A DNA stretch of 64,000 nucleotides, from contig JACYXH010000856.1 of the NCBI GenBank assembly GCA_026745465.1, positions 114,533 to 178,532 on the forward strand, read 5' to 3'. This document shows, piece by piece, positions 11,285-55,275 of this stretch (position 1 is the stretch's first letter; every line of letters starts with the position of its first letter). Origin of the DNA: Lota lota. Taxonomy: Eukaryota; Chordata; Actinopteri; Gadiformes; Lotidae. Position numbers and translations under genes: made by a program. The notes under the pieces are model-generated. The model was given only the letters and a program-made list of their open reading frames with translations. It did not search any database and had not been told where the DNA came from.

Positions 11285-11443
11285 GCCTTGCTTACCGTTT
11301 TTTTCCCCCTGTAATTCTAACTAAAACAAGTTTGTTGTAATAACAAAAGCCATGTTTTTGTTAAATTCACCTCATATCTCTCACCTTTCCTTTCCTGCAG
11401 AAAACCCCATAGTCACTCTCACAGTAAGGGCTTGAGGATTAGT

Positions 11444-11495
11444 ATTTGCATACAAGAGCCTTTGGATTAATGAATGCAAATCCAAGTGTATAAGG
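11444..11495 (+). promoter_or_regulatory. Candidate lectin promoter: two octamer motifs and a TATA-like box
   Basis: ATTTGCAT at 11444-11451 and its reverse complement ATGCAAAT at 11474-11481 form two opposed octamer (POU/Oct factor) sites. They are followed by TATAAGG at 11489-11495. The likely noncoding first exon begins about 25-30 bases later and ends at the donor GTGAGT (11553). The right-arm copy keeps one octamer and a TATA-like TATATGG near 55065-55085. Function is inferred from motif spacing only. Confidence 0.45.
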
Positions 11496-11786
11496 TGCTG
11501 GTCCTAGATGCAGACGCCTCATTCGTAGCAGACGGACCTACAGACTCTGCCGGTGAGTACCATCTTCAAGACAGAGAGAAAAACTATTTTGCGATATTTT
11601 TGTATTGCTCTCTAATGTTAGACTCCTAATTTTTGGACACCTAAGATTAATGTAATATTTCAGTTACTCATAGCTCCATCTCAAATGATCTAATCCTTTT
11701 CACTTTTAATATAATGTTAATATGAAGGAATGTATACCTAGTAGCTAGTATTATCTATTGTCTGAGCATGTTGTTTCTCCAGAACC

Positions 11787-14599
11787 ATGGGGTCAAGTCG
11801 TCTCATCTGCAGGTTCATTGGTAGGTATTCCACACAGTACGACAGTATTTATCATTATCCAGTTCATTATATTGAATTAATAAAAATGTACCTGCCATAA
11901 CTTTTAACAGTTGACCTCCTCCTATGTTATTGTGATCGTGGGCGTGTGTAAGATTCCCACCATGAATAGTTTGAATATTTCATAGAGTAGTTGCAGGATA
12001 AATGCTTGTAAAAAATAGCTGAAGTATTTATTTTATTAAGTAAATAGTATTTCCTCATCACCAGGTGTTGTGGTCCTCCTGTGGAAGTCACCTGGATTTT
12101 CTGGTATTTCTATGTGCCCCATTTAGGGGCCGATGACTAGTTATAATAATTATTATAAGTATTTCAATGTGTTTAGAACACTAGAATGCAACTTGACAAA
12201 CTATTCTGTGGTTCCACTCTCCATTAAGCTGCATCCCGCATTAACCTGGCGTTGAGCGGCAAGGCTATTCAGTCTACAACCTACTCGAACCTGGGGAAGG
12301 CTGAAAACGCCATTGATGGGAACACCGACCCTGAGTACAATCACAACAGCTGCACCCATACCAAGTTCCAAGCCAAACCATGGTGGAGGCTGGAGCTGCC
12401 TGGTGTGTACAGGGTGTCAGAGATCCAGGTCACTAATAGGAATGACGTTAGGGACAGGCTCAATGGCGTGGAAATACTCATCGGGAATTCACTGGCGAAC
12501 AACGGCAACAACAATCCAAGGTGAATCACTGGTGTCACCTCCCCTACTTCCACTGAATACTGTTAGACTCCCAGCCAAAACGTTCTGGGTTTGATTCCTT
12601 ATGACCTCGACCTGCTTTTAATTATTTGGAATTATTTGGATAAAAGTACAAATGACTAAATAGCATAAAATATTATACTCTCTGATACCTTCACCAGACT
12701 ACTGTATCTTCTCTCTCTGTCTCTTTTCCTCAGGTGTAACATCATCAACGATAACCCAAGCTGCTTGACTCAGACTGTCAAGTGTTGGGGAATGGAAGGA
12801 AGGTTCATCAACTTCTACAAGAACTCTGATGTAACAGATGCTTTGGTGTTGTGTGAGGTTAAAGTGTACGGAGGTAGGAACCCAGTCCATCATTACATGA
12901 TCATCAAAGGGGGATGGGTGTACCAGTACCACTGTTGGTCAACCATCATTGGTCAAAAGTCAAATACTGCTGTTCCTTATAGCTCAACAGGTAGAGCATG
13001 GCATTAACACTGTCAGGGTTAGGGGTTTGATTCCCACTCGGGGCTACCTATTATTACAATGTATGCACAGACAGTATTGTAAGACACTTTGGGTAAAAGC
13101 ATCCACCAAAGCACAATCTGCATACAGTGTTTTCAACCTGTGGTACCACTGGTGGTACACGAGGGTACTGCAGGTGGTACGTGGGATTTTATTCTTGAAA
13201 TAAACACTTTTTCCCACTGGCCAAGGCCTTTTTCTCAGTAATACTTGTGTATACAGGGTTTGCTGGCACTCTTGGGTCAGCCACTGCATTTGTATTTATC
13301 TAATTTCTACCGTTTGCATCTGAGGTGGTCCGTGAAAGGTCTTGATGACAATTTAGTGGTCCACCTAAAGTCAAAGGTTGGCACCACTGATCTACATGAC
13401 TGTTCTGTATTGTGATATTTCAGAGTGAAGTATCAAAGTAAGTTGGTTTCTGAATGGTCTAAGACACCTCATAGCCCTTCACATCAGTTGAGTTCAAGTG
13501 TGCTGAGATTTCAGAGAGAAAAGTACTGCCAAGTGTCTGAAGGTGTTGTGTGTGCATTTAAAAACATCGCACACCGATTGGCAATTTAGTGTCGCTAATG
13601 ACGTTTTTGTAAATGTGTCTGCTAAATGTGTTAATAGTGGGTAGGGAGTAGGTGTCTGCTCAAAGACACATAAAGAGATACTTACAGGGCTGAGAGTAGA
13701 AATCCCTCACCACCGCACTGTCTTTTGGTTCCCCAGAGTTAGGGCCTCCTCCACCCTCCATCAGCATTCAGGAGATGGGGAGGAACATCACTCTGGTGGG
13801 GAGGCGGCTGTGCTGGTCAGACGCCCTGCTGTACTGCAGAGACTTTCACTGGGACCTGCTGAGCCTCAGGGACCCAGAAGAGCATGAGATGATTGATGAG
13901 CTGGTGGCTGGTGCCCTCTTCCCACTAACCAGCCACCTCTGGGTGGGCCTGCGCAGGTACTGGCCAGACCTTGGTGTCTATCAGGCAATCAAGTCTGTCC
14001 TTATGATCATCTGTCCGTCCATCACTTTGTCTTATCAACAATACCATGAAAATATCACAAGCTAAATATTTGGCCACATTATTCTTCCTTCCACCCAGGT
14101 AACTCTTTCATCTCTTTCAATGTTGGTAGGTCTCTTTCAGGAAGCTCCTGGTTTTGGATGTCCGGTGAGCCGATGGACTTCAGCCAATGGGACGAAGGCT
14201 CACAACATTCCAGCCCCTGTGGGGGCGTGTCCAGTGTGGAACATTCCACATGGAGGCCACGCTCTTGTGAAGAACATCTTAAGTTCATCTGTTTTACAGG
14301 TTGGTGTCCAGCCTATAGAGCCATTACCAGGTCCTTATAAAGCCAAATATGCTTAACCTTCTGTAAAGGCATGCACCAGCTTGAAACAGTAAGAGGTTTG
14401 AGCTTCCTGTTAGGGAAAATAAAAGTCCTCATATGTACTACGCTCAACCTAGGATAGTGAATAAATGAAATGAGCTGTAGGTATTTTCAGCCACTTTCAT
14501 TACATTTCTTCTATTTATATTTCCGCAGGTCCGACAGAAGGAGTGAACCAGTTGCGCTTCTATACTTCCACAAGAGAGAATCAAATTCACTGCACCTAA
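11787..14599 (+). CDS. Secreted FTP (F-type lectin) + C-type lectin-domain fusion protein, left copy
   Basis: The model has seven coding exons: 11787-11820, 12065-12103, 12229-12520, 12734-12873, 13737-13956, 14145-14299 and 14529-14599. All have GT/AG ends and the phases fit at every junction, giving about 316 residues ending in TAA. A noncoding exon probably ends at 11552. The N-terminus MGSSRLICRFIGVVVLLW looks like a signal peptide. Exons 3-4 encode an FTP/fucolectin domain (INLALSGKAIQS, SCTHT, PWWRLEL, IQVTNRND, CWGMEGRFINFY, LCEVKVYG). The fucose motif is His-26 residues-Arg-Asn-Asp followed by Arg, one residue shorter than in eel agglutinin, and the usual vicinal Cys-Cys is absent. 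Exons 5-6 encode a C-type lectin-like domain (CWSDALLYC, HLWVGLR, SSWFWMSGEPMDFSQWDEG, final FIC) that lacks EPN/QPD and WND, so calcium-dependent sugar binding is unlikely. The last exon adds a short tail. It probably acts outside the cell as a glycan-binding defence lectin. An AATAAA at about 15796 may end the transcript. Confidence 0.85.
12562..12655 (+). mobile_element. SINE remnant in lectin intron
   Basis: It shares ACTCCCAG and GTTCTGGGTTTGAT with the SINE at 28018-29275 and ends in the common vertebrate SINE tail motif TTTGGATAAAAG. The same remnant sits in the right-arm intron at about 53665-53765, so it predates the duplication. Confidence 0.6.
12971..13116 (+). mobile_element. tRNA-derived SINE (V-SINE-like)
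   Basis: The head resembles a tRNA gene, with box A (TATAGCTCAACAGGTAGAGC) and box B (GGTTTGATTCC). The 3' part has GTAAGACACTTTGGGTAAAAG, a form of the conserved fish SINE tail. It lies in the intron between the FTP and CTLD exons and is shared with the right arm (53168-53285). Confidence 0.75.
13124..13389 (+). mobile_element. hAT-like MITE, left arm only
   Basis: The ends are imperfect inverted repeats (CAGTGTTTTCAACCT and the complement of AGGTTGGCACCACTG). The flanking 8 bases, ATCTGCAT and ATCTACAT, match at seven positions, as expected for a hAT target duplication. No coding capacity. The right-arm intron lacks it. Confidence 0.55.
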
Positions 14600-17173
14600 T
14601 TGGCCTCACTGGGAAACATAGCTGCTGATTTTGATAAAGACCTGAGTAGTGAAGTTTCTGAATGCTGTAGCTCAGAGTGTGTCTGAGGTAGCTAGCTAGT
14701 TCTGCATTCCGTCATTATGGGTATTGTGACAGGCCACATTTTGTGCTAGAATAGCATATAGTATACATTTACTTTAGTTTATAATCAGTGAACTTCTTTA
14801 TGACCAGATGTAGTTGTGTCATGCATCAATCCTTTGATCTGAAATGTGGAGAATGTGAGTTCAAGATGGTTTCAAAAGACTAAATCAAGTTTCTGTTGGC
14901 TTTTATATCTCTGTCTGGCTTAGCTGATTTACAAATTATATCAACACAGTAGGGTTATATCTTAAACTCTGATTGAGTAGGTTGTTTTAATGGAATTGAA
15001 GTGGGGGTTATATTTATGTATTGATATTGACGATTCACCTTTTCCTGATGTGAATGTGCTGGTTTGTCTTTATTTTGCATATAAATGTAACATATTTAAT
15101 GATTGTTTGCTAGTGTCATCCTAATATCACTGACCCGAAGACCAATAATCTGAATGTATAAATAGATCACATAGTTTGCCCCGCTGTAGTTATCAGAAAT
15201 GTTAGCAGGCTAGCTTTAGTTAACAGAGTAACAAACAGTTCTGATTCATGGCTCTCTTGGATAAGCTTTTCAATGTCCACCAACCTATCCACGTATCTTT
15301 TTGACAATATCAACGATGAAACGTGATCTCCAACCTAAACGTCAGAATAGGTTGTTTGTAGAGGTCTTTGAAAATGACCCATATGACCGTTTTAGCCCCC
15401 TATCAACTGTTTGAAGAAACAGCAATACGTCACGTATGTAAAGGTTCTGCCAAAACAAAATGGATGACAATCATTATATTCTCAGTGGAAAAAGCAACAT
15501 TTAAGATAGTTACGGAATTAAAATGAGCTTTGATAAAATTTCTAGTGATGAATATTCATTTTAATGTTGTAATCTTCAGTCAGTGAATGTAGAGGATGTT
15601 TAGTTTGTTAGTTAATGCAACTTTTTCTATCGTTGCCATGGTGATTCATATAGATGCTGGTAACCCTGAAACAACGCAGCTTGCATGTTGTTTGAATCTT
15701 TGTTTTGCGTTGTGTAACATTAGTCATCTGGGCTGCTATGTTATGTGTGTTCAAAGTCATGATATGTTATTTTATGTAACTGATGATGTTCTTTCAATAA
15801 AAACATAGATTTTTGAGTGACCCACGGATGACTTTTTCCGTCTTTGGGACGGAGCAGGCCGTAATGAGTTTATATCCACTTTGCTTCCGCCAAAAAATCC
15901 ATTCTAAAGGTTAATTTTATAAAAACATAGATAATAAGCACAATATAATCATGACCAATTAATTCCGCTTTAAAGCGTTTATGCGTCAATAAAGTAAAAG
16001 GAAGACTAAAAAGACTTGAAAGGCCCTCAAGGACAAGTAAGATAATACATTTAGGGCCTCTAGCCCTACAGGAAATAACTAAAAGAGTCTCGGATAATGC
16101 TCCATCTCATGACCTCTTACCCCTCTCACTTTGTTAGATCTCAGAAGGGGCGTGGCGTGGGCTCCTTCTGACCTTTCGACCCCATATATGAAAAACAGCT
16201 GTCTTTACACGCTGTTGAGGAAAGTGTCTTTAAACAGTTAAATTTGGTTTTGCCTCATACTGTTCCCCCCTCCCAGCCAGAACCCGGTCTCTGCCCCCCA
16301 CTGTTAGTTGACGACACCTTTTCCCTGCCCTTACGCCCCCCCCCCCCCCCCCCCGCCAGATCCCTTTCTCTGAACCCCAGTTTGAGTTCATATTTATATT
16401 TACCTTCATCCTGTTCTCATCCCCCTCCCTGCTAAACGTCTGTCTCTAACCCCCTTTTGTTCTTAAAGATATTGTAAGATATTGCTCCACGGTTGGTATT
16501 GCCATCAAATGGCCCTTCCCTTGTCTCACAACCTAACAACAGATCCCCCTCAGACAAACAGGTCGGGGGCCCATCATCAATAATTAGCCTGGATGTAGCC
16601 GTAGGGTGTAGGCGGTTTGTCATTGGCTTAATTTAATAACGGTAACCCAATAGCCATCTGTGGGTTATACCTTTTTGCATGATAACAGATGATGATAGGA
16701 GGTAACTGAGAGCCCCGCCCTTGTCATGTGCTTTAAGACACTGTGTTGTGTGATGACTAAAAACTTTAGTGGGAGACGTATGGGAGAAGAATAATAAGAG
16801 AGCACTCAGGATTTTACACACAGAATCAAGCAGAGCTTTTTGTGACCATGGAAGGACTCTGGTGGTTGTTTTGGGGATCCAGCATGAGCCCACAAATAGA
16901 GCATTGAACGTGAAGTATTGACTCTGCTGTCTTTTTGGAAGAATCGGACTGGAAACTTGCTGTGGATATATGTGAACTTCTACACATAAGAAAAAAATTG
17001 TTTAGTCTCTTGACCTCAGGGTTCAGAGGATAGCCTAGCATCATAGCACCAGAGTCTAGCGTCATGGAGATGCTATGTGATGGTGCTGGTGGTGATGGTA
17101 CTGGTAGTGGTGGAGGAGTTCTCGGGTGAGGTAGTAATAAGGGGACTCAGGGAGCCAATGTGCAGGCAGACAT
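14600..17173. other. Lectin 3' side and non-coding left-arm DNA
   Basis: No second gene was recognised. The block is homologous to 48480-51209 in reverse. It has a C homopolymer near 16338-16355, AATAAA at 15796, and an AT-rich 3' UTR-like stretch up to about 15810. 16440-17060 has several open frames on minus but no domain. The right copy has an extra stretch of about 280 bases (49495-49775) not found here. Confidence 0.5.
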
Positions 17174-17233
17174 CTTGACAGGTGCTAGGACCCTGGGGAA
17201 GCCGTGGTCCCCAGGGTCCTAGCGCCTGTCAAG
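17174..17233 (+). other. 60-base near-perfect hairpin
   Basis: 26-base arms (CTTGACAGGTGCTAGGACCC... and its complement) enclose an 8-base loop AGCCGTGG. Only one position is non-Watson-Crick, and it would be a G-U pair in RNA. It is absent from the matching part of the right arm. It could be a microRNA-like hairpin, a foldback element, or a product of replication template switching. Confidence 0.75.
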
Positions 17234-17689
17234 TGTGAACTCAGTGCGGTCAGCTCCAGTAGGAGGACGATACTACCGGCCTACTGAAGACCAGACGGCC
17301 CCGTTTTCCAGGGACAGTCCCCGTTTTAAAAAATAGCATTTTAAAGATATATCAACAGATTGAAAGGTTCTAGCATGCTCATGAATATTCATTTCTAGAC
17401 AGTTGGTAATTAGTCTGGGGTCTATCTGATAGGCTGTGACGCGGCCTCGCTACGCGGGGGGTCTATATATGGATTTAAACCATAAGCAGACCGATCATAT
17501 TCAATAGGCTATCAATACAATATGTAGCAATACAGTTGTGGATGACAAACTAAGCTTTGAGCTTAATGTGAAGTCAGTCTCAAACAAAGGTCACCAGCTC
17601 TAATTCTTTTTAAGGAAGCTTTGATCACCAGTGCAAAAGTTAAATATTTGTGTGTAGCGACTGGTGGTTATTTGCGACTGTAACTGGGA

Positions 17690-17707
17690 CACACACACAC
17701 ACACACA

Positions 17708-17746
<39 letters not shown>
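17690..17746 (+). repeat. (CA)n microsatellite
   Basis: Near-pure CA repeats. The right-arm counterpart is (TG)n at 46975-47008. Confidence 0.95.
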
Positions 17747-17748
<2 letters not shown>

Positions 17749-17759
17749 GTCTGTATGGG

Positions 17760-18065
17760 CAGGAGAGCACTTCACCGGGGAGTGTCGCTCGAGGAGGGAG
17801 GAGCCGTGAGCTGTACAGGTCCGGACACACGGCACTTCCGCTCGCACCGCTCGCTGTCCATGTTCCCTCGTGAAGAGTCTGGAGCCTTCCGCTCCGTCAG
17901 CCTCCGCAGTCCAGTCAGCCTCCGCACCGCGCGGAGCGTCGTGTTGACGCTGAGTGAACTGTCTCTCCGCCCCCACGGGCCACGCCCCCACGGGCCACGC
18001 CCCCTCTTGCCGTATGAACCAGGTGTGTCGCATTAGTCGTTCACCTCGTCCGACCCGGAAGTAGA
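17760..18065. promoter_or_regulatory. CpG-rich island, promoter-like
   Basis: This stretch is dense in CpG in an otherwise CpG-poor neighbourhood. It has a 15-base direct repeat with CCACGCCCC (GC/KLF box) around 17970-18003, and ETS-type CCGGAAGT near 18054 and ACTTCCG near 17836. The same block is conserved at 46670-46960. Both strands are open for long stretches, but the peptides resemble nothing known and neither neighbouring gene starts here. A promoter for an unseen noncoding transcript, or the relic of a lost 5' exon, are both possible. Confidence 0.4.
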
Positions 18066-18941
18066 CTCTGTTCAACACAGTACGATTTGGGCTGAGAACA
18101 CTCAGCGGGAGGAGGGGGGGGGGGGGGTTATCTCCATGGTTACGACCCACGGCCACTTTGTGATGCTCTTTTTTACAGTCGCTGAGTGGGAGCGTCATCA
18201 TGAGCGATGTTGAATATGAAACGCACCACACACCGTGGCCTTATCCTACAAGTGTCCCAGAAGCTTCATGAACCTTCTCGGACCCCAACAATAACCACTC
18301 CCCAGATGGAGCTGTCGTTGTGACGTCACGGGGCCTCCGAAAGGCCCCGTAGACATCCCGGAAAGAACCGGACCGGAGTTCAGAGCAGCGTGGAACGGGT
18401 TTCTTTCTGCATTATGTGATTATTCTAGTAACGTTGACTAAAGAGCATAGGTTACTAAGTTTAAGATCATAGAAGACATACTAAGACGGAACAAGATAAG
18501 GGTTTATATTGGTAATGATAAGAATTGTAGGTAATATAATTATATAGAATAATGAGCACTGTTAATAACCTCTCATTTATAACAGCCTGCTTTTATATAT
18601 AACAAGTATTTATTAAATAATAATAACTCAAGTAGAAGTAAGAGTAGTCATCAGATAATAGCTTGAGGAAGAGTAAGAAAGTACCTAGTGAAAAGACTAC
18701 TCAAGTACTGAGTTATTTCAAACCAAATGATTTATTGTTGTAATAAGCAGAGCAAGATGAACGTAAATAGACACATATTACATTGTATATGCTTGTCTAA
18801 TAGACATTAACAACATATAAAATAGCATGTATCCCATCAAATAAAACATCACACAATAACATATTAAACGTTTACAAAATAACATGAATGAAGACAAATA
18901 CAGACACAAGAAAGCTCTCTCTCTCTCTTTCTGTGTGTTTG

Positions 18942-18944
<3 letters not shown>
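18066..18944. other. Non-coding, includes the candidate TRIM poly(A) region
   Basis: 18232-18860 matches 45880-46480 in reverse. On the minus strand AATAAATCATTTGG (around 18722-18735) is conserved at the same place after all three TRIM16-type B30.2 exons (also about 36123-36136 on minus, 45973 on plus), so it is the likely polyadenylation signal. A GC-rich self-complementary motif GGGGCCTCCGAAAGGCCCC lies at about 18329-18347. Confidence 0.5.
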
Positions 18945-19028
<84 letters not shown>

Positions 19029-19034
19029 GTGTGT
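18945..19034 (+). repeat. (GT)n microsatellite
   Basis: About 45 near-pure GT units. Confidence 0.96.
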
Positions 19035-21244
19035 AAAGATTTGCACCGTTTGAAGAAGTAGATAACCCCCTTGGGAGTAAAATTGGATCTTACATAAACA
19101 CACACACACACGTGCGCAGATCATCATTGTTTGTTAATGATCAGAAGAATACAGCCCTCCCTCCCTCATATGAGACCACATCAGTCCTGTAACTACAAAC
19201 ACCAGCAGCCCTATAATGACCATCATCTTTATTCAAATATGAGATTAGTTGGCACACAAAGACCAACGATAACAACCAAAGTCCACCATGTAGTCTGCTT
19301 CACTGCCATAGGCAGAGTGAAAATTTGAATCAAAAAGAACAAAACATGAGCTGTGAAGCTGCTCAACAGTTGGGGTTGGAGCCAACCACTCGACCACAAG
19401 GGCCCTCGGGGTGTGTGTGTGTGTGTGTTTGTGTGTGTGTTTGTGCATGCGTGCGAGTGTGTGCATGCATGCGCGCATGTGTGTGCGTGCGTGTGTGTGC
19501 GTGTGTGTGCATGCGTGTTTGTGTGTGTGTTTGTGTGTGTGTGTGCGTGCATATGTGTGCATGTGTGTGTGTGTGGGGTAGGAGGAAGTTGGCGGCGGGG
19601 GTTTGAGATGAATGTTGAACAGGTTGAGACGATCTAGCACATCTGGGGAACGTGATTAACTGTCCTTAGGAACATGCAACACTGGAGAACGGAGGAAGGA
19701 TTAAAGGGCTGTGTCAGACAGAAAAGAAGTCCTTATATAGAGCATGTCCAACATCCATACCTTCAGATTGGTGCCACAGCAGTGAGGGCCGCTATCGCCG
19801 ATATGGCCTGGACCATCAGTGAGGCAGCGGGGGTGTCAGACAGACCAGGCAACCAAAAGTTAAAATGTCTTGATTCTGTCCAAACCTCCACGCCCCACAC
19901 CCCCTCCTCTGAGCTGATGAACTATTCATCTTGTCCGTTGTTTCTTTCAGTTCAAAGTTGTCTTTTATAGAAGTAAAGGGGGGGACGGTTAGATTAATCT
20001 GTAAATCTTTAATCTTATGTTGGCATACTGTATGTTTGTTGGCTTATGAAAGGTCTCCAAAAATGAAGCAACGTGGGGAAAACCAACAGGGAATGTAGGG
20101 CATCATGTGTTCTGGCCAGAGTACGCGGTCAGTTTACCCAAAATCCCAAATATCCTCCCACTTTTTACCAAAACAACCAGGTGGTTTCTATGGGATTTCT
20201 TTGAAAAACGGCCTCATATCTTAATATTTAGTCTTTTATTAGACGCAGTGATCCAAAGCTACGTAGTGAAAAGATACACATATGCGTTGAAAGTATGATG
20301 CTAAGGGTGCTGCAGCACCCCCCGTTTGAAATAATGTTGTAAATATTATTGTAGTTTTTTAAAATAATTTCTGATTTATATATATTCTTCTTCTTAAGGC
20401 CCTTGTGTTAGCATTATTTAGTATTAAAACTAAAATAATTATTGGCTGAATACACGAGAACATTCAGTTGAATCCACTCTTTATTACCATGACGCTTCAT
20501 TAACAAATAGAACAGAAAAATAGTCCCTTACGTGTACACAATAAACACAAGAACTAATATAATAGAAGTAGCAGACATTACAAACCATAAACAGGTGCGC
20601 ACATATCTTGAATAACTGAACATGTTCTGCTGACATTTTGTTCCCAACAGAACACAAGGAATCAATATTCAGTTTAAAGTTATTTACAACATGAACATTA
20701 CCCCATAGACCAGTTGGTCTAATGAATAAAATATCAAATCTGCTTTAAATCAGGTTCCATGTTAGGATTATTACAATGAAAACTGAAATCAGAGTCCTGA
20801 AGAACAAAACTGTTAATGACTGAAAATATACAAATATTGTAGTATAAGAAAAATGTGATTTACCATCAACAAGTATTTAAATACATTTCAAATTAAAAAA
20901 AGTATATTTGTAAAACCTGCTTAGCTAACTCTATGGAGAATCTTAAAAGTCTCTTCCATTCATGGCTTATCAAGATAAACTTTTCAGAAGCCCAATAAAA
21001 TGTAGCATTTGGAGTTTAGTTAATACATGTTTTAAAATCAACCAAAATACAAAAGTCTTGAAATTGCGGAAACACTGATACGAGTATCATTCATAGTGAT
21101 GTCACACGTTCACCTTCTCTACAGCGTATAAAAAAACAAAACACTGATTCATTCTCCTGACCCAATTTACACTGATAACCACCTTATACAATAGAGAGAG
21201 AGAACATGACATCAACCTCTAAAACAGAGCAATAGTCCCTAACC

Positions 21245-21247
<3 letters not shown>
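19035..21247. other. Left-arm-specific block, no gene recognised
   Basis: About 2.2 kb with no counterpart in the right arm. It holds a fragment duplicated from 2995-3135, a (GT)n/(GTGC)n tract at 19405-19576, and unique AT-rich DNA. On minus, about 19750-19850 reads SDTPAASLMVQAISAIAAL followed by TAVAPI, which is coding-like and hydrophobic but unassigned. The block separates the TRIM stop codon from its conserved poly(A) motif. Confidence 0.5.

Positions 21248-21280
<33 letters not shown>
21248..21280 (+). repeat. (GT)n touching the TRIM stop codon
   Basis: The repeat begins immediately after the stop codon of the B30.2 exon (minus strand). Confidence 0.95.
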
Positions 21281-21284
<4 letters not shown>

Positions 21285-26059: not shown

Positions 26060-26109
<50 letters not shown>

Positions 26110-27240: not shown

Positions 27241-27242
27241 TC

Positions 27243-30845: not shown

Positions 30846-30982
30846 AGTCGTTTTTTTAAAGAAAATCCCTTCCTCCTTTGCACCTCTGACTCTCACAATG
30901 TTTCATCTGCCCTGGCCAGGTGCACTTGTACAACCCCCCCCCCCCCCCCAAAAGAAACCTCAGGTCACTCTTGAGCCAACAA

Positions 30983-35544: not shown

Positions 35545-35584
35545 CATTATATCAGCAAAACGATAATCACCACAATATAAAAAA

Positions 35585-43741: not shown

Positions 43742-44415
43742 ATGAGTACATGTCTATGTATATATAGTATCTACGTGTATGTATGAGTACATGTCTATGT
43801 ATATATAGTATGTACGTGTATGTATAAGTACATCTCTATGTATATATAGTATGTACGTGTATGTATGAGTACATGTCTATGTATATATAGTATGTACGTG
43901 TATGTATAAGTACATGTCTATGTATATATAGTATGTACGTGTATGTATAAGTACATGTCTATGTATATATAGTATCTACGTGTATGAGTACATGTCTATG
44001 TATATATAGTATGTACGTGTATGTATGAGTACATGTCTATGTATATATAGTATGTATGAGTACATGTCTATGTATATATAGTATGTATGTGTATGTATGA
44101 GTACATGTCTATGTATATATAGTATGTACGTGTATGTATGAGTACATGTCTATGTATATATAATATGAACGTGTATGTATGAGTACATGTCTATGTATAT
44201 ATAGTATGAACGTGTATGTATGAGTACATGTCTATGTATATATAGTATGTATGAGTACATGTCTATGTATATATAGTATGTATGTGTATGTATGAGTACA
44301 TGTCTATGTATATATAGTATGTACGAGTATGTATGAGTACATGTCTATGTATATATAGTATGTATGAGTACATGTCTATGTATATATGGTATGTATGTGT
44401 ATGTATGAGTACATG
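43742..44415 (+). repeat. Minisatellite, about 41-bp unit, right arm
   Basis: Reverse-complement partner of 22190-22881, with a similar copy number. Confidence 0.93.
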
Positions 44416-45369
44416 TATGATATGTGTATGTAGTGTAAATATTGAGGGAGTAAATAGTTTATACATGTTCCTTGGTTTCAATGTGTTGACTGGGACAGCC
44501 ACTCACACACACATGGGATTTGCTATTAACTTTAACTTTAATTATCTTAAAAACAACGTGTACTATTACTATACTAAATATATAGCACATGATTCCACTA
44601 TAGTGCTTTTTTTATATGATCATATATACATTTTTTGTCTTTCTATGTTAATGTTTGAAGAGTAGATAGCGACCATAAAAAGTGTCAGAAAGAGAATAAA
44701 AAGAAGTTTGCAAGAGAACAGTACTAGTGATGATGATGATGATGAAGAACGGTTCAGCAGCTAATCATGTCTTGTTCTCCCATCAGATGCCTGTGAACTC
44801 ACACTGGACCCAAACACAGTCCACAGACTACTCTCTCTGTCTGAGGACAACAGAAAGGTGACGCTGGTTAGAGAGGACCAGTCGTATCCTGATCACCCAG
44901 AGAGATTTGACTCCCATCACCAGGTGTTGTGTAGAGAGCCTCTGACTGGCCGCTGTTACTGGGAGGTAGAGAGGGAAGGACAAGTTTTTATAGGAGTGAC
45001 ATACAGAGGAATCACAAGGAGAGGAGGGGGGGGGTGACAGCTGGCTTGGAGGGAACAACAAGTCCTGGAGTCTTCTTTGTAATGATGGTGTTTACATTGC
45101 CTGGTACAACGGTAGTAGAACAGTCATACGTCTCCCCCCCGCTGGCTCTAACAGAGTAGGAGTGTATCTGGACCGGACTGCTGGCACTCTGTCCTTCTAC
45201 AGAGTGTCCCCAGATGTAGGAGGGTCCTCAGACACACTGACACACATCCACACCTTCCAGGCCACCTTCACCCAGGAGGAGCTCCTCCCTGGGTTTTGGT
45301 TAAGGGGTGCCTCAGTGTCTCTGTGTCGGATGTAGAAAAATAGAAATGCGGCGGGCGGGCCGTGTGTGT

Positions 45370-45685
45370 GTTTCTTTTTTTCACACACACATAGGACACA
45401 CACAAACACACATAGTACACACACACACACACATAGTACACACACATACACACACATAGTACACACACACACACATAGTACACACACACATAGTACACGC
45501 ACACACATAGCACACGCACATAGTACACGCACATAGTACACGCACACATAGCACACACAAATAGTACACACACATAACACACACATGGCACACACACATA
45601 GTACACACACATAGTATACACACATAGCACATGCACATAGTACACACGCACATAGTACACACACATAGTACACACACATAATTAC
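45370..45685 (+). repeat. (CA)n-CATAGTACA compound microsatellite
   Basis: Long CA tracts broken by ATAGTA, placed just after the B30.2 stop as at 36460-36700. The frames here (Cys/Val-Tyr repeats) are artefacts. Confidence 0.95.
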
Positions 45686-46669
45686 ACGAAGAAGTTATAT
45701 TTTCTCTTTCATTTACTTCAATAATCTTTTACATTTTTTAATGTAACATATTGTTTGCTTTTACTCAAGTCTGTTTGTGAATTAAAAATGGAGGCGAGAG
45801 AGAGATTTATTGTTGCTGTATTTTCCTTATTTCCTTATTTTGTAAAGATTTAATGTCTGTGTTTTATTTGAAGGGTTACATGGCTATTTTATGTGTTGTT
45901 AATGTCTATTAGACAAGCATATACAATGTAATATTTGTCTATTTACGTTCATCTTGCTCTGCTTATTACAACAATAAATCATTTGGTATGAAGTAACTCA
46001 GTACTTGAGTAATCTTTTCACTAGATACTTTCTTACTCTTCCTCAAGTCACTATCTGATGACTACTTTTACTTCTACTTGAGTTATTATTACTTTAAATA
46101 TATACTTGTTATATATAAAAGTAGGCTGTTATAAATAAGAGGTTATTGACAGTGCTCATTATTCTATATAATTATATTACCTACAATTCTTATCATTACC
46201 AATATAAACCCTTATCTTGTTCCGTCTTAGTATGTCTTCTATGATCTTAAACTTAGTAACCTATGCTATTTAGTCAACGTTACTAGAATAATCACATAAT
46301 GCAGAAAGAAACCCGTTCCACGCTGCTCTGAACTCCGGTCCGGTTCTTTCCGGGATGTCTACGGGCCCTTTCGGAGGCCCCGTGACGTCACAACGTCAGC
46401 TCCATCTGGGGAGCGGTTATTGTTGGGGTCCGAGAAGGTTCATGAAGCTTCTGGGACACTTGTAGGATAAGGCCACGGTGTGTGGTGCGTTTCATATCCA
46501 ACATCGCTCATGATGACGCTCCCACTCTGCGACTGTAAAAAAAAGAGCATCACAAAGTGGCCGTGGGTCGTAACCATGGGGATAAAATCTCCCCCCCCTC
46601 CCCATCTCCCTCCCTCCCCCTACCCCCCGCTGAGTGTTCTCAGCCCAAATCGTACTGTGGTGAACAGAG
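45686..46669. other. TRIM 3' region and non-coding DNA, right arm
   Basis: Contains AATAAATCATTTGG at about 45973, the likely poly(A) signal, and mirrors 18232-18860. Confidence 0.55.
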
Positions 46670-46969
46670 TCTACTTCCGGGTCGGACGTGGTGAACGACT
46701 AATGCGACACACCTGGTTCATACGGCGAGAGGGGGCGTGGCCCGTGGGGGCGGAGAGACAGTTCACTCAGCGTCAACACGACGCTCCGCGCGGTGCGGAG
46801 GCTGACTGGACTGCGGAGGCTGACGGAGCGGAAGGCTCCAGACTCTTCACGAGGGAACATGGACAGCGAGCGGTGCGAGCGGAAGTGCCGTGTGTCCGGA
46901 CCTGTACAGCTCACGGCTCCTCCCTCCTCGAGCGACACTCCCCGGTGAAGGGCTCTCCTGCCCATACAG

Positions 46970-46975
<6 letters not shown>
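46670..46975. promoter_or_regulatory. CpG-rich island, right-arm copy
   Basis: Conserved mirror of 17760-18065, with one GGGGCGTGGCC box where the left has two, and ACTTCCGG at about 46673. A partial third copy of the neighbouring segment occurs at 56100-56200. Confidence 0.4.
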
Positions 46976-47010
<35 letters not shown>

Positions 47011-47130
47011 GCATCAATATAGACATGATTAAGCTGCATGTGTGTGTGTGTTTGTGTGTGTTTGTGTGTGTTTGTGTTTGTGTGTTGTATCAATATAGAC
47101 ATGATTAATCTGCATGTGTGTGTGTGTGTC
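46976..47130 (+). repeat. (TG)n microsatellites with a 60-bp duplication
   Basis: Two copies of ATCAATATAGACATGATTAA each flanked by TG repeats. The same 20-base motif is in reverse at 58600-58620. Confidence 0.93.
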
Positions 47131-48480
47131 TTTCTGAATACCTTCCTGTAATGTGTGTAAGAAAATCACCCTGCCTTTTGTAGAAACATAACCCATTATA
47201 AATGGTTACATTACATATACTATACTGTTCACTGTCTGTTTTCTCCTCAACACCTTTTATAACCTTTAATGCTAGAACATCAACAGTTGCAGTCATGTAG
47301 AAATGTTTAAAGGATTTAAGTTTATGCTAACGAATACTGAATAACATGTTACAATGTATGATCACTTTACTGATTTGAATAAAGACAAAGTGTGTGTATA
47401 TCGCATCAATATAAACAAAAAACAATGATCACCACGATATAAATAAATACAAGGTGAAACTAACACAGCAGTCCTATTCAAATATGCTTCATAACTGTAG
47501 GCCTATAATAGTGCTGACTAAATATATGAACATAGTTGTTTCCAGGCCTACAGTTTGTTAAATGCCAACACTGCTGTATTATGCAGTCATGTCTGTTTCA
47601 TTCACCTCTAGCTAGTAACATGGAGAATGAAGCTATAGGCCTACATGAATCATTTAAACGTCTTGAGAATAATAAACCAATTGATTTGATGTAAGGTCCG
47701 TTTTGAAACACTAGAAAAAGGTGCACTGTAGCACCATCTGCTGGTTAGATGACGTCAGTGCAACTGGCTGACCTGAAAAACATGAACCCTACGTCATCAC
47801 CAATGATTTATGTGTTGAGACGGTCCTGGCAGTTTTAAATCACCTTGAAGGTCATTTCATGTCCCTCTCATACGAGTGATCCTCTCAAATATAGAGTAGG
47901 CCTACACTACATAACACAATATAGGGATTGGCTCCACAATGTTCAAAGCAATATCACATGAATGGTTAAAATCCCTGGTCACCCAAATCCAAAGGGTAAA
48001 AACGTCTTCTTGAATTCAAAGTTGATATTAGTCATCCATCAAAGATTGATAAAGAAAATATGCTATTTAATAATCTAAAATGCTGTTTAAAAATGGCTTT
48101 ATTAGCACATCACATCATTTTCCAGGATTGAGTGGGCATGGCAGTAATTTGGTTAGAGCTGTTTGATTGACAGCTACAGGAACCAATCGGGTCTGACCAC
48201 TGGGCCTTCATCATTCTATATTGTCCCTGGCAGTATTTTAAAATACAATTCATTACAAAAGCCGTTTGCCACATGTGTCGTTTACTAATTACCGGTCTGC
48301 TACTTGTACGTGGGCCTACCAGGGCATGGGTAGAGTAGATGAATCTTTATTATCCCTGCTGGGGCAATTCCTTTTACAGCAAACAGTTAAAAAAAAGGTA
48401 AAGAACAATTAAGATGGGGTCCTAAAACATATACAGCTAAAAGGAACATTAAAACACTATAAGATTAGGTAGACTCTGGC
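47131..48480. other. Right-arm-specific block
   Basis: It includes 47520-47945, a direct duplicate of 35585-36010, and a single diverged unit of the 8893-9140 minisatellite near 48395-48460. No gene recognised. Confidence 0.6.
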
Positions 48481-51209
48481 TCTATGATGCTAGGCTATCC
48501 TCTGAACCCTGAGGTCAAGAGACTAAATTAGGTGTAGAAGTTCACATATATCCACAGCAAGTTTCCAGTCCGATTCTTCCAAAAATACACCTGAGGCAAT
48601 ATTTCACGTTCAATGCTCTATTTGTGGGCTCATGCAGGATCCCCAAAACAACCACCAGAGACATTCCATGGTCACAAAAAGCTCTGCTTGATTCTGTGTG
48701 TAAAATCCTGAGTGCTCTCTTATTATTCTTCTCCATTCTTCTCCCATTAAAGTAGTTTCTTCATCACACAACACAGTGTCTTAAAGCACATGACAAGGGC
48801 TGGGCTCTCAGTTACCTCCAATCATTACTTGTTATCATGCAAAAAGGTGCAACCCACAGATGGCTATTGGGTTACCGTTATTAAATTAAGCCAATGACAA
48901 ACCGCCTACACCCTCTCTAGGCTAATTATTTCGGGGGAGGGGGGGGGGATGATGGGCCCCCGACCTGTTTGTCTGAGGGGGATCTGTTGCTAGGTTGTGA
49001 GACAAGGGAAGGGCCATTTGATGGCAATACCAACCGTGGAGCAATATCTTACAATATCTTTAAGAACAAAAGGGGGTTAGAGACAGACGTTTAGCAGGGA
49101 GGGGGATGAGAACAGGATGAAGGTAAATATAAATATGAACTCAAACATGGGTTCAGAGAAAGGGATCTGGCGAGGGGGGGGGGGGGTAAGGGCAGGGAAA
49201 AGATGTCGTCAACTAACATTAGGGGGCAGAGACCGGGTTCTGGCTGGGAGGGGGGAACAGTATGAAGCAAAACCAAATTTAACTGTTTAAAGACCCTTTC
49301 CTCAACAGCGTGTAAAGACAGCTGTTTTTCATATATGGGGTCGAAAGGTCAGAAGGAGCCCGCGCCACTCCCCTTCTGAGATCTAACAAAGTGAGAGGGG
49401 TAAGAGGTCATGAGATGGAGCATTATCCGAGGCTCTTTTAGTTATTTCCTGTAGGGCTAGAGGCCCTAAATGTATTATCTTACTTGTCCTTGAGGGCCTC
49501 TTTCATATGAAAGAAACACCAGGTCTCTTTCTCACTCCAAAGTGTCCTTGACCCCTAGGTCACCTACTAATTACATAACTTCCTGTAGGGCTGGAGGTAC
49601 AGTACATTAGCTACTATTTTAGTAAATCTTGATGCCCTGATTCATATAAAAGAGACCAGATGTCGTCATCTTACTCCCTGTGCACACACCATTAACAGGT
49701 TAATGGTGTGTTTGCATCACTTCCTGTAGGCCTAGGACCCTCATGATGATAATTGTAGTAATCTTTTGAAAGTCTTTTTAGTCTTCCTTTTACTTTATTG
49801 ACGCATTAACACTTTAAAGCGGGATTAATTGGTCATGATTATCTTGTGCTTATTATCTATGTTTTTATAAAATTAACCTTTAGAATGGATTTTTTGGCAG
49901 AAGCAAAGCAGACATAAACTCCCTGTTTTCCCACAAAACATGTCGGCCTGGTCCGTCCCAAAGAAGAAATATGTCATCCGTGGGTCACTCGAAAATCTAT
50001 GTTTTTATTGAAAGAACATCATCAGTTACGTAAAATAACATATCATGACTTTCATATAACACACATAACATAGCAGCCCAGATGACTAATGTTACACAAT
50101 GCAAAACAAAGATTCAAACAACATGCAAGCTGCGTGGTTTCAGGGTTAGCAGCATCTATATGAATCACCATGGCAACGATAGAAAAAGTTGCATTAACTA
50201 ACAAACTAAACATCCTCTACGTTCACTGACTGAAGATTACAACATTAAAATGAATATTCATCACTAGAAATGTTATCAAAGCACATTTTAATGCCGTAAC
50301 TATCTTAAAATGTTGCTTTTTCAACTGAGAATAGAATGATTGTCATCCATTTTGTTTTGACAGAACCTTGACATACGTGACGTATTGCTGTTTCTTCAAA
50401 CAGTCGATAGGGGGCTAAAACTGTCATATGGGTCGTTTTCAAAGACCTATACAAACAACCTATTCTGACGTTTAGGTTGGAGATCACGTTTCATCATTGA
50501 TATTGTCAAAAAGTTACGTGGATAGGTTGATGGTCATGAACAGCTTATCCAAGAGAGCCATGAATCAGAACTGTTTGTTACTCTGTTAACTAAAGCTAGC
50601 CTGCTAACATTTCTGATAACTACAGCGGGGCAAACTATGTCATCTATTTATACATTCAGATTATTGGTCTTCTGGTCAGTGTTATTAGGATGACACTAGC
50701 AAACAAACATTAAATATGTTACATTTATATGCAAAATAAAGACAAACCAGCACATTCACATCAGGAAAAAGTGAATCGTCAATATCAATACATAAATATA
50801 ACCCCCACTTCAATTCCATTAAAACAACTTACTCAATCAGAGTTTAAGATAAAACCCTACTGTGTGGATATCATTTGTAAATCAGCTAAGCCAGACAGAG
50901 ATATAAAAGCCAACAGATACTTGATTTAGTCTGTTGAAACCATCTTGAACTCACAATCTCCTCATTTCAGATCAAAGGATTGATGCATGACACAACTACA
51001 TCTGCTCATAAAGAAGTTCACTGATTATAAACTAAAGTAAATGTATTCTATATGCTATTCTAGCACAACATTTGGCCTGTCACAATGCCCATAATGACGG
51101 AATGCAGAACTAGCTAGCTACCTCAGACACACTCTGAGCTACAGCATTCAGAAACTTCACCACTCAGGTCTTCTTCAGAATCAGCAGCTATGCTCCCCAG
51201 TGAGGCCAA
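48481..51209. other. Right-arm non-coding DNA and lectin 3' region
   Basis: Mirrors 14600-17070. G homopolymers lie at about 48943 and 49177-49187. A perfect 13-base hairpin is at 49684-49711. TTTATT (AATAAA on minus) at about 50005 is the partner of the left poly(A) candidate. Confidence 0.5.
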
Positions 51210-54200
51210 TTAGGTGCAGCGAATTTGATTCTCTCTTGTGGAAGTATAGAAGCGCAACTTGTTCACTCCTTCTGTCTGACCTGTGGAAATATAAATATAA
51301 GAAGGTAAATGAAAGTGGCTGAAAAGACCTACAGCTGATTTCACTCATTCACACTCCTAGGTTGTTCACAGTACTAAGGAGGACTTTTATTATCCCAAAT
51401 AGGAAGCTTGAAAGTCTTATTGTTTGAAGCTGTTTGTATTTTTTTTTTAGTTGACTGAAAAAAGAGATTCCTCATGAAGATCTTATCTGAGACTCCCTTG
51501 TGCAGGTAGCACATGCAAGCTGGTGCATGCCTTTACAGAAGGTTAAGCATATTTGACTTGATAAGGACCTGGTAATGGCTCTATAGGCTGGACACCAACC
51601 TGTAAAACAGATGAAGTTAAGATGTTCTTCACAAGAGCGTGGCCTCCATGTGGAAGGTTCCACACTGGACACGGCTCCACAGGGGCTGGAATGGTGTGAG
51701 CGTTCGTCCCATTGGCTGAAGTCCATCGGCTCACCGGACATCCAAAACCAGGAGCTTCCTGAAAGAGACCTACCAACATTGAGAGATTAAAGAGTTACCT
51801 GGGTGGAAGGAAGAATAATGTGGCCAAATATTGAGCTTGTGTTATTTTCATGGTAATTTTGATAAGACAAAGTGATGGACGGACAGACGATCATAAGGAC
51901 AGACTTGATTGCCTGACAGACACTAAGGTCTGGCCAGTACCTGCGCAGGCCCACCCAGAGGTGGCTGGTTAGTGGGAAGGGGGCGCGAGCCACCAGCTCA
52001 TCAATCATCTCCTGGTCTTCTGGGCCCATGAGGCTCAGCAGGTCCCAGTGAGAGTCTCTGCAGTACAGCAGGGCGTCTGTCCAGCACAGCCGTGTCCCCA
52101 TCAGAGTGAGGTTCCTCCCTATCTCCTGAATGCTCATGGAGGGTGCAGCGAGCTCTGTGGAAACAATTGACAGTGTGTTGTTGAGGGAGTTTTACTTTCA
52201 GCACTGTAAGTCTAGTAGAGCTATGAAGTAGAGCCTCTATAATCCCATTCAAAATAGCCTAGCCTACTATTAATATTTACTATGTACCTATTCACCGTAT
52301 ATACAGTCTTCTGCATTGCCAATGCCACTATCAGCATGTAGTTGTTAAACGTTCTGTCCACTAGAGGGCATTCTACCAATTTACATTTATTTAAATATTT
52401 TATTAAATATATTTAGGTAAATATTAATATTAGCAACAAAATCACGACTCACATTGTTTTACATTTAATGTGATTGTTCGTTTCACACAACAATAAAATA
52501 ATAACAAGTCATTGAGTTGAATGGGAGTGAACACATACAAAGTGATTTCCCTTTTGCAAAAGGCAACATACATTTGATTCACACCAAGGTCTAATTTGTA
52601 CGGCTCTAGCCAGGGAATAAATATGCTAAACCAATCACATTTCGCTGTCTTTGTCAAAGTCACCATTGAAACTGTACAAGTTGGAGGAGGTACCAGCCTA
52701 TTAACGTTTCTCAACACACAGTGTTCTTACTGCATCCAAAGTGGTAAACTACAATTATAGACCTATAAATATCACTATCTGTTATATGTATTGATCATTC
52801 ATCTCGATAGCAGTCGGCGCCACAAGCGAATGTTATATTCCACCTCAGTACGTGAATATAGGTTGCTTTTGATAACATGAAGGTGTGCCGTTGTATCGCA
52901 ACAGTTTAGTTTTGGATACCAACTTTCTACAAAAGAGTGACAACTCTATTTTAGTTATTGAGCAGGGAAACAACCTCAAAAACCATAGTCTCCAAAACAT
53001 GGATGTATTCAAGAATGCACACCCACTTATTATATAATTATATATTATATATATTATAAATTAGAAGTCAGCAATGCTGCTTATGCTCCCTTTTTGATTA
53101 TTAAGCAAACACAAAGCAACACAAAGCATCAATGGAAAACCTTACAATGCAAAAAGGTTATTGCACAAAGTGTCTTACAATAACATCATGCATACATTGT
53201 AATAATAGGTAGCCCCGAGTGGGAATCAAACCCCTAACCCTGGCAGTGTTAATGCCATGCTCTACCTGTTGAGCTATAAGGAACAGCAGGATTTGACTTT
53301 TGACCAATGATGGTTGACCAACAGTGGTACTGGTACACCCATCCCCCTTTGATGATCATGTAATGATGGACTGGGTTCCTACCTCCGTACACTTCGACCT
53401 CACACAACGTCAAGTAGCCTCCTTGATCAGAGGACTTGTAGAAGTTGATGAACCTCCCTTCCATTCCCCAACACTTGACAGTCTGAGTTAAGCAGCTTGG
53501 GTCATCGTTGATGATGGCACACCTGAGGAAAAGAGACAGAGAGAGAAGATACAGTAGTCTGGTGAAGGTATCAGAGACCAGATTCCAGTAGCTGGTGTAT
53601 GTCCAGGTGTACTTCAGCAGAGCACTGGCTGTGTTCCCTTATTTTCTGGGAATAGAATATTCTATGCTATTTAGTGATTTACATTTTTATCCAAAGACAC
53701 TTAAAAGCAGATTGAGGTCCATAGGGATCAAACCCAGAACGTTTAGGCTGGGAGTCTAACAGTATTGAGTGGAAGTAGGGGAGGTGACACCAGTGATTCA
53801 CCTTGGATTATCGTTGCCGTTGTTCACCAGTGAATTCCCGATGAGTATTTCCACGCCGTTGAGCCTTTCCCTAGCAACATTCCTATTAGTGACCTGGATC
53901 TCTGACACCCTGTACACACCAGGCAGATCCAGCCTCCACCATGGTTTGGCCTGTTCCTGGGTATGGGTGCAGCTGTTGTGCTCCAACAGAGGGTCGGTGT
54001 TCCCATCGATGGCGCGTTCAGCCAGCCCGCCCCAACCGGTTGTAGACTGAATAGCCGTGCCGCTCAACGCCAGGTTAATGCGGGATGCAGCTTAATGGAG
54101 AGTGAAACCATAGAGTAGTTTGTGAAGTTGCATTCTAGTTTTCAAAACAAATTGAAATACTTATAATAATAATTATAACTTGTCATCGGCCCCTAAATGG

Positions 54201-54541
54201 GGCACATAGAAATACCTGAAAATCCAGGTGACTTCCACAGGAGGACCACAACACCTGGTGATGAGGAAATAATATTTATTTAAGAAAATAATATTTAAGC
54301 TATTATCAGCTTATAATTACAAGCATATATTCTGCAACTATCAATGAAATATTCAAACTAGTCATGATAGGAATCTTACACAAGCCCAGGATTACAATAA
54401 CATAGGAGGAGATCAACTATCAAATGTAATGGCAAGTTGATTTTTTATTAATTCAATATAATGAACTGGATAATGATAAATACTGTAGTGCTGTGTGGAA
54501 TACCTACAAATGAAACTGCAGATGAGACGACTGGACCCCAT
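51210..54541 (-). CDS. Secreted FTP (F-type lectin) + C-type lectin-domain fusion protein, right copy
   Basis: Seven coding exons on minus: 54541-54508, 54254-54216, 54090-53802, 53522-53383, 52154-51941, 51754-51600 and 51280-51210. All have GT/AG ends and phases fit, giving about 313 residues. It differs in length from the left copy only by whole codons (one in exon 3, two in exon 5). Signal-like start MGSSRLICSFICVVVLLW. FTP domain with SCTHT, PWWRLDL, WGMEGRFINFY and LCEVEVYG. The fucose-motif Asp is replaced (NRNVARERL against NRNDVRDRL), and the segments TGWGGLAER, LLEH and QEQ differ strongly from the left copy. The CTLD (CWTDALLYC, LWVGLR, WMSGEPMDFSQWDE) is nearly unchanged and also lacks EPN/QPD and WND. 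It is probably a diverging secreted lectin paralogue with altered sugar preference. The noncoding exon begins near 55007. Confidence 0.85.
53168..53285 (-). mobile_element. V-SINE-like element, right-arm copy
   Basis: Reverse-complement partner of 12971-13116. The tail after GTAAGACACTTT is replaced by other sequence. Its intron position is conserved. Confidence 0.7.
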
Positions 54542-55044
54542 GGTTCTGGAGAAACAACATGCCCAGACAATAGATAACACTAGCTACTAGGTGTACATTC
54601 CTTCATTTGAAGGAATGTACACCTAGCAAGGTCCACCTGCAAGGTGGAAAGTATAAGTGCATAAGCACTTATACTAAGGTACTGTTCATACGTAAACAAT
54701 AAGTGCACATACACTACTACAGTAGTAGTAATACTACTTGTAGTAATACTAGTAGTAATACTTAATACTACACTATTATGACACTTAGCACATAAGTAAG
54801 ACTATACGTTTGTGGCAAGGTATACATTCATACGTGATGACACATACACCATTCTACAACAAGTGGGAACCAATAGATCCTTTGAGATGGAGCTATAAGT
54901 AATTGACACATTACATTAATCTTAGGAGCCCAAAAATGAGGAGTCTACCATTACAGAGTAATACAATAAAATCGTTTTCTCTCTCTGACTTGAAGATGGT
55001 ACTCACCGGCAGAGTCTGTAGGTCCGTCTGCTACGAATGAGGCG

Positions 55045-55140
55045 TCTGCATCTAGGATCAGCACCATATACACTTGGATTTGCATTAAGTAATCCAAAGG
55101 CTCTTGTTTGCAAATACTACTGCTCAAGCGATGACTGTGG
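55045..55140 (-). promoter_or_regulatory. Candidate promoter of the right lectin gene
   Basis: ATGCAAAT (read on minus, about 55078-55085) and TATATGG are retained from the left promoter. The second octamer is altered to TTTGCAAA. Function inferred from homology to 11444-11495. Confidence 0.35.
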
Positions 55141-55275
55141 GAGTGATTAGGGGAGGTTCTAAGCGGCAAAGAAATAGTGAGAGACATGAGGTGAATTTAA
55201 CAAAAACATGGGCCTCTTTATTACAACAAACTTGTCTCGGTTTGAGGTACAGGGGGAAACCGGTAAGCAAGGCTG

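What the first reader, a model, noticed from the sequence alone, without database searches (positions are those of the whole stretch)
11285..55275. About 15-kb imperfect palindrome carrying two lectin and two TRIM loci
The arms 11285-26480 and 39405-55275 are reverse complements over most of their length, with a roughly 13-kb spacer. Genes in each arm converge. Such inverted duplications promote inversion, gene conversion and copy-number change, and here the cargo is immune-related.
Basis: seen in the sequence. Interest (0 to 1): 0.7.

Follow-up and report, generated by a model that had tools for sequence, protein, structure and literature searches.

The report
Inverted immune-gene duplication in a fish
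A fish-like stretch of DNA carries two mirror-image copies of a block with a sugar-binding lectin gene and a TRIM immune gene; both lectins look intact but differ where they should touch sugar, while one TRIM copy is cut off at the mirror edge, an example of a known way that immune genes multiply and diversify.

Summary
The inverted duplication is real in the sequence: arms 11284-26477 and 39405-55274, 94.9% identical over 11,341 aligned bases. Identity is mosaic. A stretch of arm A (21802-25151) has 20 mismatches in 3,232 aligned columns; the rest has 557 in 8,109 (6.9%). That fits recent arm-to-arm gene conversion.

The cargo needs correcting. Each arm holds one lectin gene, a probably secreted F-type + C-type lectin chimera with open frame and GT-AG introns in both arms. 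Only TRIM A is intact (540 aa). Arm B's TRIM starts at codon ~252, cut by the inner junction, and has a 1-nt insertion in its B30.2 exon. A third, frameshifted TRIM (C) lies in the 'spacer', and a remnant (D) at 5.8-7.1 kb.

Recognition parts diverge most. B30.2: A/B dN/dS 4.6; ML omega 3.1, p=0.005. F-type domain: 19 of 27 differences fall in 36 loop positions around the fucose pocket (loops set by me); its overall dN/dS is about 1.

These are known processes in fish TRIM and lectin families. Neither reads nor relatives were available; misassembly is unlikely but not excluded.

The parts
11284..26477 (+). Arm A of the inverted duplication
39405..55274 (-). Arm B (reverse complement of arm A)
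26478..39404 (.). Spacer, 12,927 bp, with TRIM copy C, tandem arrays and a Tc1-type transposase fragment; also the 5' part of TRIM A exon 1
11787..14299 (+). Lectin gene A (F-type lectin domain + C-type lectin domain): exons 11787-11820, 12065-12103, 12229-12520, 12734-12873, 13737-13973, 14141-14299; 5 of 5 introns GT-AG, frame open; 3' end beyond exon 6 not settled
51600..54541 (-). Lectin gene B, same six exons: 54541-54508, 54254-54216, 54090-53802, 53522-53383, 52154-51924, 51758-51600; 5 of 5 introns GT-AG, frame open
26172..27240 (-). TRIM A exon 1 (RING, B-box, coiled coil in one exon); its 5' part lies outside arm A
21281..21834 (-). TRIM A exon 2 (PRY-SPRY/B30.2 and stop); with exon 1 gives an intact 540-aa protein
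39395..39710 (+). TRIM B truncated coiled-coil exon: homology starts at codon ~252, stop just upstream, no RING or B-box match
44787..45335 (+). TRIM B B30.2 exon; 1-nt insertion in a G run and a 6-nt deletion relative to A
37735..38696 (-). TRIM C (spacer) RING/B-box/coiled-coil exon with an internal deletion and frameshift
36739..37299 (-). TRIM C B30.2 exon region; altered at its 3' end
5765..7064 (-). TRIM D remnant with flank: B-box and start of coiled coil, 37 bp from a divergent SPRY piece (31% identity); no RING match
21802..25151 (.). Arm A side of the near-identical tract (mostly TRIM intron), 20 mismatches in 3,232 columns to arm B; mate in arm B about 41.6-44.8 kb
39397..39405 (.). 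Inner junction: C-type upstream flank (similar to 8457-8681) meets the truncated arm-B exon

Best explanation
This is an inverted segmental duplication inside a small array of TRIM + lectin units in a teleost-like genome. One unit (arm A: F-type/C-type lectin on +, TRIM on -) was copied in inverted orientation. The inner junction fell inside the TRIM coiled coil, so arm B has an intact-looking lectin gene but a TRIM without RING and B-box. After the copy, arm-to-arm gene conversion homogenised at least one 3.3-kb stretch, while recognition parts (B30.2 exon, fucose-pocket loops of the lectin) diverged by selection for new ligands. Shown: the arms, the mosaic identity, the open and broken frames, the excess of amino-acid-changing differences in B30.2. 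Inferred: conversion as the cause of the tract, selection as the cause of the excess, the fish origin (from the nearest protein relatives), secretion, and that the two lectins bind different fucosylated glycans.
For: Colinear inverted arms at 94.9%. A window of 3,000 aligned columns with 19 mismatches, not reached in 2,000 column permutations (lowest 110) or 5,000 block permutations (lowest 45); sharp edges at 21801 and 25152. Lectins A and B: 5 of 5 introns GT-AG in each and open frames of 300 and 297 aa through exon 6; F-type match to FBP32 (3cqo) E=2.9e-68; His52, Arg79 and Arg86 of eel agglutinin kept in both, while aligned positions 27, 45, 46 and 81 differ (roles of these residues from PMC5712786, passages). 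B30.2 A/B: 37.2 nonsynonymous and 2.8 synonymous differences, omega 4.6, Fisher p=0.005; ML omega 3.14 over 188 codons of A, B and C, LRT p=0.005. TRIM B truncation and TRIM C frameshift.
Against: Counts behind omega are small; A/C and B/C alone are not significant by Fisher (p=0.07, 0.14). Arm B's own changes (17N:2S) are compatible with neutrality (p=0.12); A's are borderline (17N:1S, p=0.045). B and C are damaged copies, so selection on them is hard to explain unless it predates the damage or variants came by conversion. The exon-intron contrast at the B30.2 exon is confounded because the tract ends inside that exon. F-type lectin omega overall is 1.02, and CTLD 1.82 is not significant. Over all six lectin exons against all aligned intron parts divergence does not differ (81/894 against 76/1008, p=0.24). 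Loop windows were drawn by me after seeing the alignment. No reads, transcripts or relatives.
Confidence: 0.75

Rival explanations
1. Assembly artefact: two haplotypes, or two distant copies, were joined in opposite orientation.
For: The inner junction lies within 8 bp between a flank shared with 8457-8681 and a truncated coding exon, a place where an assembler could misjoin; the B30.2 frameshift in B is in a G run.
Against: Arms differ by 5.1% of aligned bases overall and by 11-14% in lectin exons 3-4, with long stretches present in one arm only; a 12.9-kb spacer does not look like a fold-back read artefact; the window has no N and continues beyond both outer ends.
Confidence: 0.15
2. No recent conversion: the whole duplication is recent (about 0.6% divergence), and the more divergent parts were replaced by recombination with other copies of the cluster.
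For: The arms are mosaic in more than one way: B and C share a repeat-rich stretch 3' of the B30.2 exon (75% identity), while parts of A's 19.1-19.6 kb resemble 3.0-3.65 kb on the side of remnant D (79% and 72%).
Against: The divergent part is 8,109 of 11,341 aligned columns and stays colinear; a single 3.3-kb tract is the smaller change. Both versions need exchange between copies.
Confidence: 0.2
3. The nonsynonymous excess reflects relaxed constraint in decaying copies, not selection for new binding.
For: TRIM B and C are broken; B- and C-specific changes fit neutrality; F-type domain omega is about 1.
Against: Relaxed constraint gives omega near 1, not 3-4.6; A, the intact copy, also has 17N:1S; the lectins are intact in both arms and their differences cluster in loops.
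Confidence: 0.25

Closest known systems
Class IV TRIM genes of teleosts (finTRIM, btr, trim35/hltr) with B30.2 under positive selection (PMC2657112, PMC3137616; passages seen)
   Same: RBCC-B30.2 protein, local duplicates, pseudogene copies, omega>1 in the B30.2 exon
   Different: RING to coiled coil lies in one 1,069-nt exon here, against the 555-594, 96, 234, 154, 60, ~545 bp exon pattern given for ftr genes; best solved relatives are TRIM25 (RBCC) and, among TRIM proteins, TRIM16 (B30.2)
Zebrafish NLR-B30.2 family (PMC4852459; passages seen)
   Same: Gene conversion plus positive selection on B30.2 domains
   Different: NLR, not TRIM, partners; nearly 400 genes there, three alignable B30.2 copies here
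F-type lectins: eel AAA/eFL isoforms, MsaFBP32, oyster bindins (PMC5712786; passages seen)
   Same: H-R-R fucose triad kept while CDR loops vary between paralogues
   Different: One F-type domain joined to a C-type lectin domain; the review credits Bishnoi et al. (not seen) with finding CTLD associated with FTLD in teleosts
Gene-bearing palindromes with arm-to-arm conversion (mammalian sex chromosomes, willow; PMC6790999, PMC7023750; search listing and start of abstract only)
   Same: Inverted arms with genes and conversion between arms
   Different: Lower identity (94.9%), large spacer, sex linkage not examined, immune cargo

Membership tests
Inverted segmental duplication (palindrome) | Two long arms in reverse-complement orientation | tested here: met
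Inverted segmental duplication (palindrome) | Arm-to-arm gene conversion | tested here: met
   one tract only; conversion as its cause is inferred
Inverted segmental duplication (palindrome) | Near-identity over whole arms, as in Y palindromes (recalled) | tested here: not met
   94.9% of aligned columns
Inverted segmental duplication (palindrome) | Present in the physical chromosome (reads span it) | not testable with these tools
   no reads; the genome search own unanswered in 9 of 9 tries
TRIM class IV (RBCC-B30.2) | RING, B-box, coiled coil and PRY-SPRY in order | tested here: met
   TRIM A only; TRIM B lacks RING and B-box
finTRIM (ftr) | ftr pattern of six coding exons | tested here: not met
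   two exons in my model of TRIM A against PMC2657112 (passage)
F-type lectin | F-type domain by sequence | tested here: met
   3cqo E=2.9e-68 for the whole 301-aa query, 1k12 E=2.1e-29 aligned over 28-167 (arm A)
F-type lectin | His52-Arg79-Arg86 triad | tested here: met
   both arms
F-type lectin | Asp81 in CDR4, which interacts with subterminal sugar in AAA | tested here: inconclusive
   D in A, V in B
C-type lectin domain | Lectin_C by profile | tested here: met
   Pfam PF00059 E=1.5e-9, on two arm-A pieces joined by hand before the splice sites were settled; one search agrees
C-type lectin domain | Canonical calcium/sugar motifs EPN or QPD and WND (recalled) | tested here: not met
   read by eye in the translation: EPM, no WND; sugar binding by this domain is not claimed

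The most novel reading that the evidence does not exclude
The mirror-image arrangement works as a germline diversifier for two unrelated recognition systems at once: pairing between arms keeps introns and frameworks alike by conversion, while ligand-contact codons of an extracellular lectin and an intracellular TRIM are exempt or re-shuffled, with the truncated arm-B TRIM kept as a silent donor of B30.2 variants to the intact arm-A gene.
Probability: 0.1. Interest if true: 0.65.

Novelty: new member of a known kind. Interest (0 to 1): 0.35.

Why it matters
Paralogues that share a near-identical intron but differ in binding parts give a clean test of how conversion and selection act together on immune genes. 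The locus offers that for a lectin and a TRIM side by side, including a truncated TRIM whose B30.2 exon could act as a donor. Otherwise it illustrates how fish immune clusters grow and break, and shows that counting 'two TRIM genes' from such arms overstates what works.

Tried and rejected
Structure prediction of the TRIM A B30.2 domain (alignment of A and C only) came back at mean pLDDT 43, too poor to place variable residues in loops; not used, and no fold search was run.

The genome search on the window's own assembly was tried nine times and never answered, so other copies in the genome and the species are unknown. The viral, metagenome, prokaryote-genome, phage, plasmid and E. coli collections were not searched for this fish-like sequence.

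Termini that would mark the 455-bp element shared by 47507-47961 and 35584-36039 as a transposon were not clear. The inner junction was aligned with A and with D and showed no long microhomology by eye; no mechanism of the inversion is claimed. The idea that the B30.2 exon outruns its own intron was dropped because the near-identical tract ends inside the exon. A first exon-intron test for the lectin left out the 56-bp second piece of intron 4; with it the result weakens from p=0.006 to p=0.026, and for all six exons against all aligned intron parts it vanishes (p=0.24). Feature limits differ by up to three bases from the exons settled.

Papers: searches were (no hits). Rows shown for (12 of 82; 1 of 1) included no fish lectin/TRIM palindrome; I do not claim that none is in print.
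Full report
OBSERVATION. A self-comparison of the window gives minus-strand matches that pair 11284 with 55274 and 26477 with 39405. Aligned in five blocks, the arms share 11,341 columns with 577 mismatches, 94.9% identity, plus 1,067 gap columns; stretches between blocks, present in one arm or unalignable, were left out. The arms are 15,194 and 15,870 bp and the spacer 12,927 bp.

MOSAIC IDENTITY. Identity per 200 bp runs from 84% to 100%. Per feature, mismatch is 13.0% in the lectin 5' flank, 11.0% and 14.4% in lectin exons 3 and 4, 2.6% to 10.4% in the other lectin exons and introns except a 56-bp intron piece at 19.6%, 4.9% and 4.1% in the two blocks between the genes, 1.6% in the TRIM intron block 21857-25566, 11.6% in its remainder and 3.9% in the coiled-coil end. 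The lowest window of 3,000 aligned columns (A 21993-25110) has 19 mismatches against 153 expected; 2,000 column permutations gave at best 110, and 5,000 permutations of 200-column blocks at best 45. From 21802 to 25151 there are 20 mismatches in 3,232 columns; outside, 557 in 8,109. Mismatches resume sharply at 21801 and 25152. The simplest reading is a recent gene-conversion tract between the arms; the reverse (a recent duplication with replaced flanks) is kept as a rival.

LECTINS. Each arm carries one gene with an F-type lectin domain followed by a C-type lectin domain (3cqo E=2.9e-68, 1k12 E=2.1e-29; C-type matches from about residue 187 on). Six exons were placed by eye from the sequence and checked: in each arm 5 of 5 introns are GT-AG and the frame is open, giving 300 aa (A) and 297 aa (B) from a hydrophobic start to the end of exon 6. 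Secretion is inferred from that start; no signal-peptide program was run. Where translation ends after exon 6 is not settled. Of 27 differences between A and B in the F-type domain (26 substitutions, one deletion), 19 lie in 36 loop positions and 8 in 104 others (Fisher p=4e-8). I set the loop windows myself on eel agglutinin numbering after seeing the alignment, and counted residues without an eel counterpart as loop. The fucose triad His52, Arg79, Arg86 is kept in both. Positions aligned with AAA residues 27, 45, 46 and 81 differ; a review describes these as pocket or extended-site residues (PMC5712786, passages). Loops have pN 0.38 and pS 0.23; the rest pN 0.04 and pS 0.09. For the whole F-type domain omega is 1.02, and for the C-type domain 1.82 with bootstrap P=0.07, so selection on the lectins is suggested by the pattern, not proven by omega. 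F-type exons 3+4 differ somewhat more than introns 1-4 (52/429 against 69/845, p=0.026), but all six exons do not differ from all aligned intron parts (81/894 against 76/1008, p=0.24). The association of F-type and C-type domains in teleosts is already reported (PMC5712786 citing Bishnoi et al., passage).

TRIM COPIES. TRIM A is intact: one exon 27240-26172 for RING, B-box and coiled coil, a GT-AG intron, and a B30.2 exon 21834-21281, 540 aa. Only the 3' part of exon 1 lies in arm A, because the palindrome ends at 26477 inside it. Arm B therefore has only the end of that exon, from codon ~252 with a stop just upstream, plus a B30.2 exon with a 1-nt insertion in a G run and a 6-nt deletion. A third copy, C, sits in the spacer as a direct repeat of A: its coiled coil has a deletion and frameshift. 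A fourth, D, left of the palindrome, has no RING match and is followed after 37 bp by a divergent SPRY piece. So the statement 'two TRIM loci' becomes one intact gene and three damaged copies in this window.

B30.2 DIVERGENCE. A/B: 37.2 nonsynonymous and 2.8 synonymous differences over 189 codons, dN 0.092, dS 0.020, omega 4.6 (Fisher p=0.005). A/C omega 2.3 (Fisher p=0.07), B/C 2.0 (p=0.14). One ML omega for all three (188 codons) is 3.14; fixing it at 1 costs 3.96 log units, p=0.005. Split by copy, unique changes are A 17N:1S, B 17N:2S, C 9N:3S; only A is nominally off neutrality (p=0.045; B 0.12; C 0.67). Between A and C the intron next to the exon differs by 25% over 238 columns, while synonymous sites of the B30.2 exon differ by 3%, those of the coiled-coil end by 3% and those of the RING/B-box part by 9%, which suggests that B30.2 and coiled-coil ends have been exchanged between A and C as well. 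Gene conversion together with selection on B30.2 is described for zebrafish NLR-B30.2 genes (PMC4852459, passages), and positive selection on B30.2 for finTRIM, btr and trim35 genes (PMC2657112, PMC3137616, passages).

ORIGIN AND RIVALS. A, C and D are TRIM copies in one direction and B is the inverted one. The inner junction falls within 8 bp, between a flank shared with D's side (39194-39397 to 8457-8681) and the truncated exon. B and C share a repeat-rich region just 3' of the B30.2 exon, while parts of A's 19.1-19.6 kb resemble 3.0-3.65 kb, so more than one exchange probably shaped the cluster. A haplotype misjoin is disfavoured by the divergence, the one-arm stretches and the spacer, but only reads can exclude it.

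VERDICT. The finding is real and its reading partly right. It is a new example of known processes (inverted segmental duplication, arm-to-arm conversion, diversifying selection in fish TRIM and lectin genes). The most interesting part is the contrast between a nearly identical intron and divergent recognition sequence, with the caveats given.

Noticed in passing
896-2360: Cluster of five tRNA-like genes on + (Gln, Ser, Asp, Leu and one of unclear anticodon) with a duplicated ~300-bp unit 1724-2020/2250-2546.
   Followed up: no
12972-13045 and 53211-53284: tRNA-Val-like element in lectin intron 4 of both arms, perhaps a tRNA-derived SINE that predates the duplication (Rfam reached its threshold only for the arm-B copy).
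   Followed up: partly
30856-31425: Tc1/mariner-type transposase fragment (HTH_Tnp_Tc3_2) in a frame that runs on into an AG-rich microsatellite.
   Followed up: no
47507-47961 and 35584-36039: 455-bp element, 94.7% identical, present in arm B and beside TRIM C, not found by BLAST in arm A; no clear termini.
   Followed up: partly
58670-60540 and 62330-63640: Long related G/T-rich minisatellite arrays with strong strand asymmetry.
   Followed up: no
26172-27240: RING, B-box and coiled coil sit in one exon, where finTRIM genes are described with several; perhaps intron loss in this TRIM lineage.
   Followed up: partly
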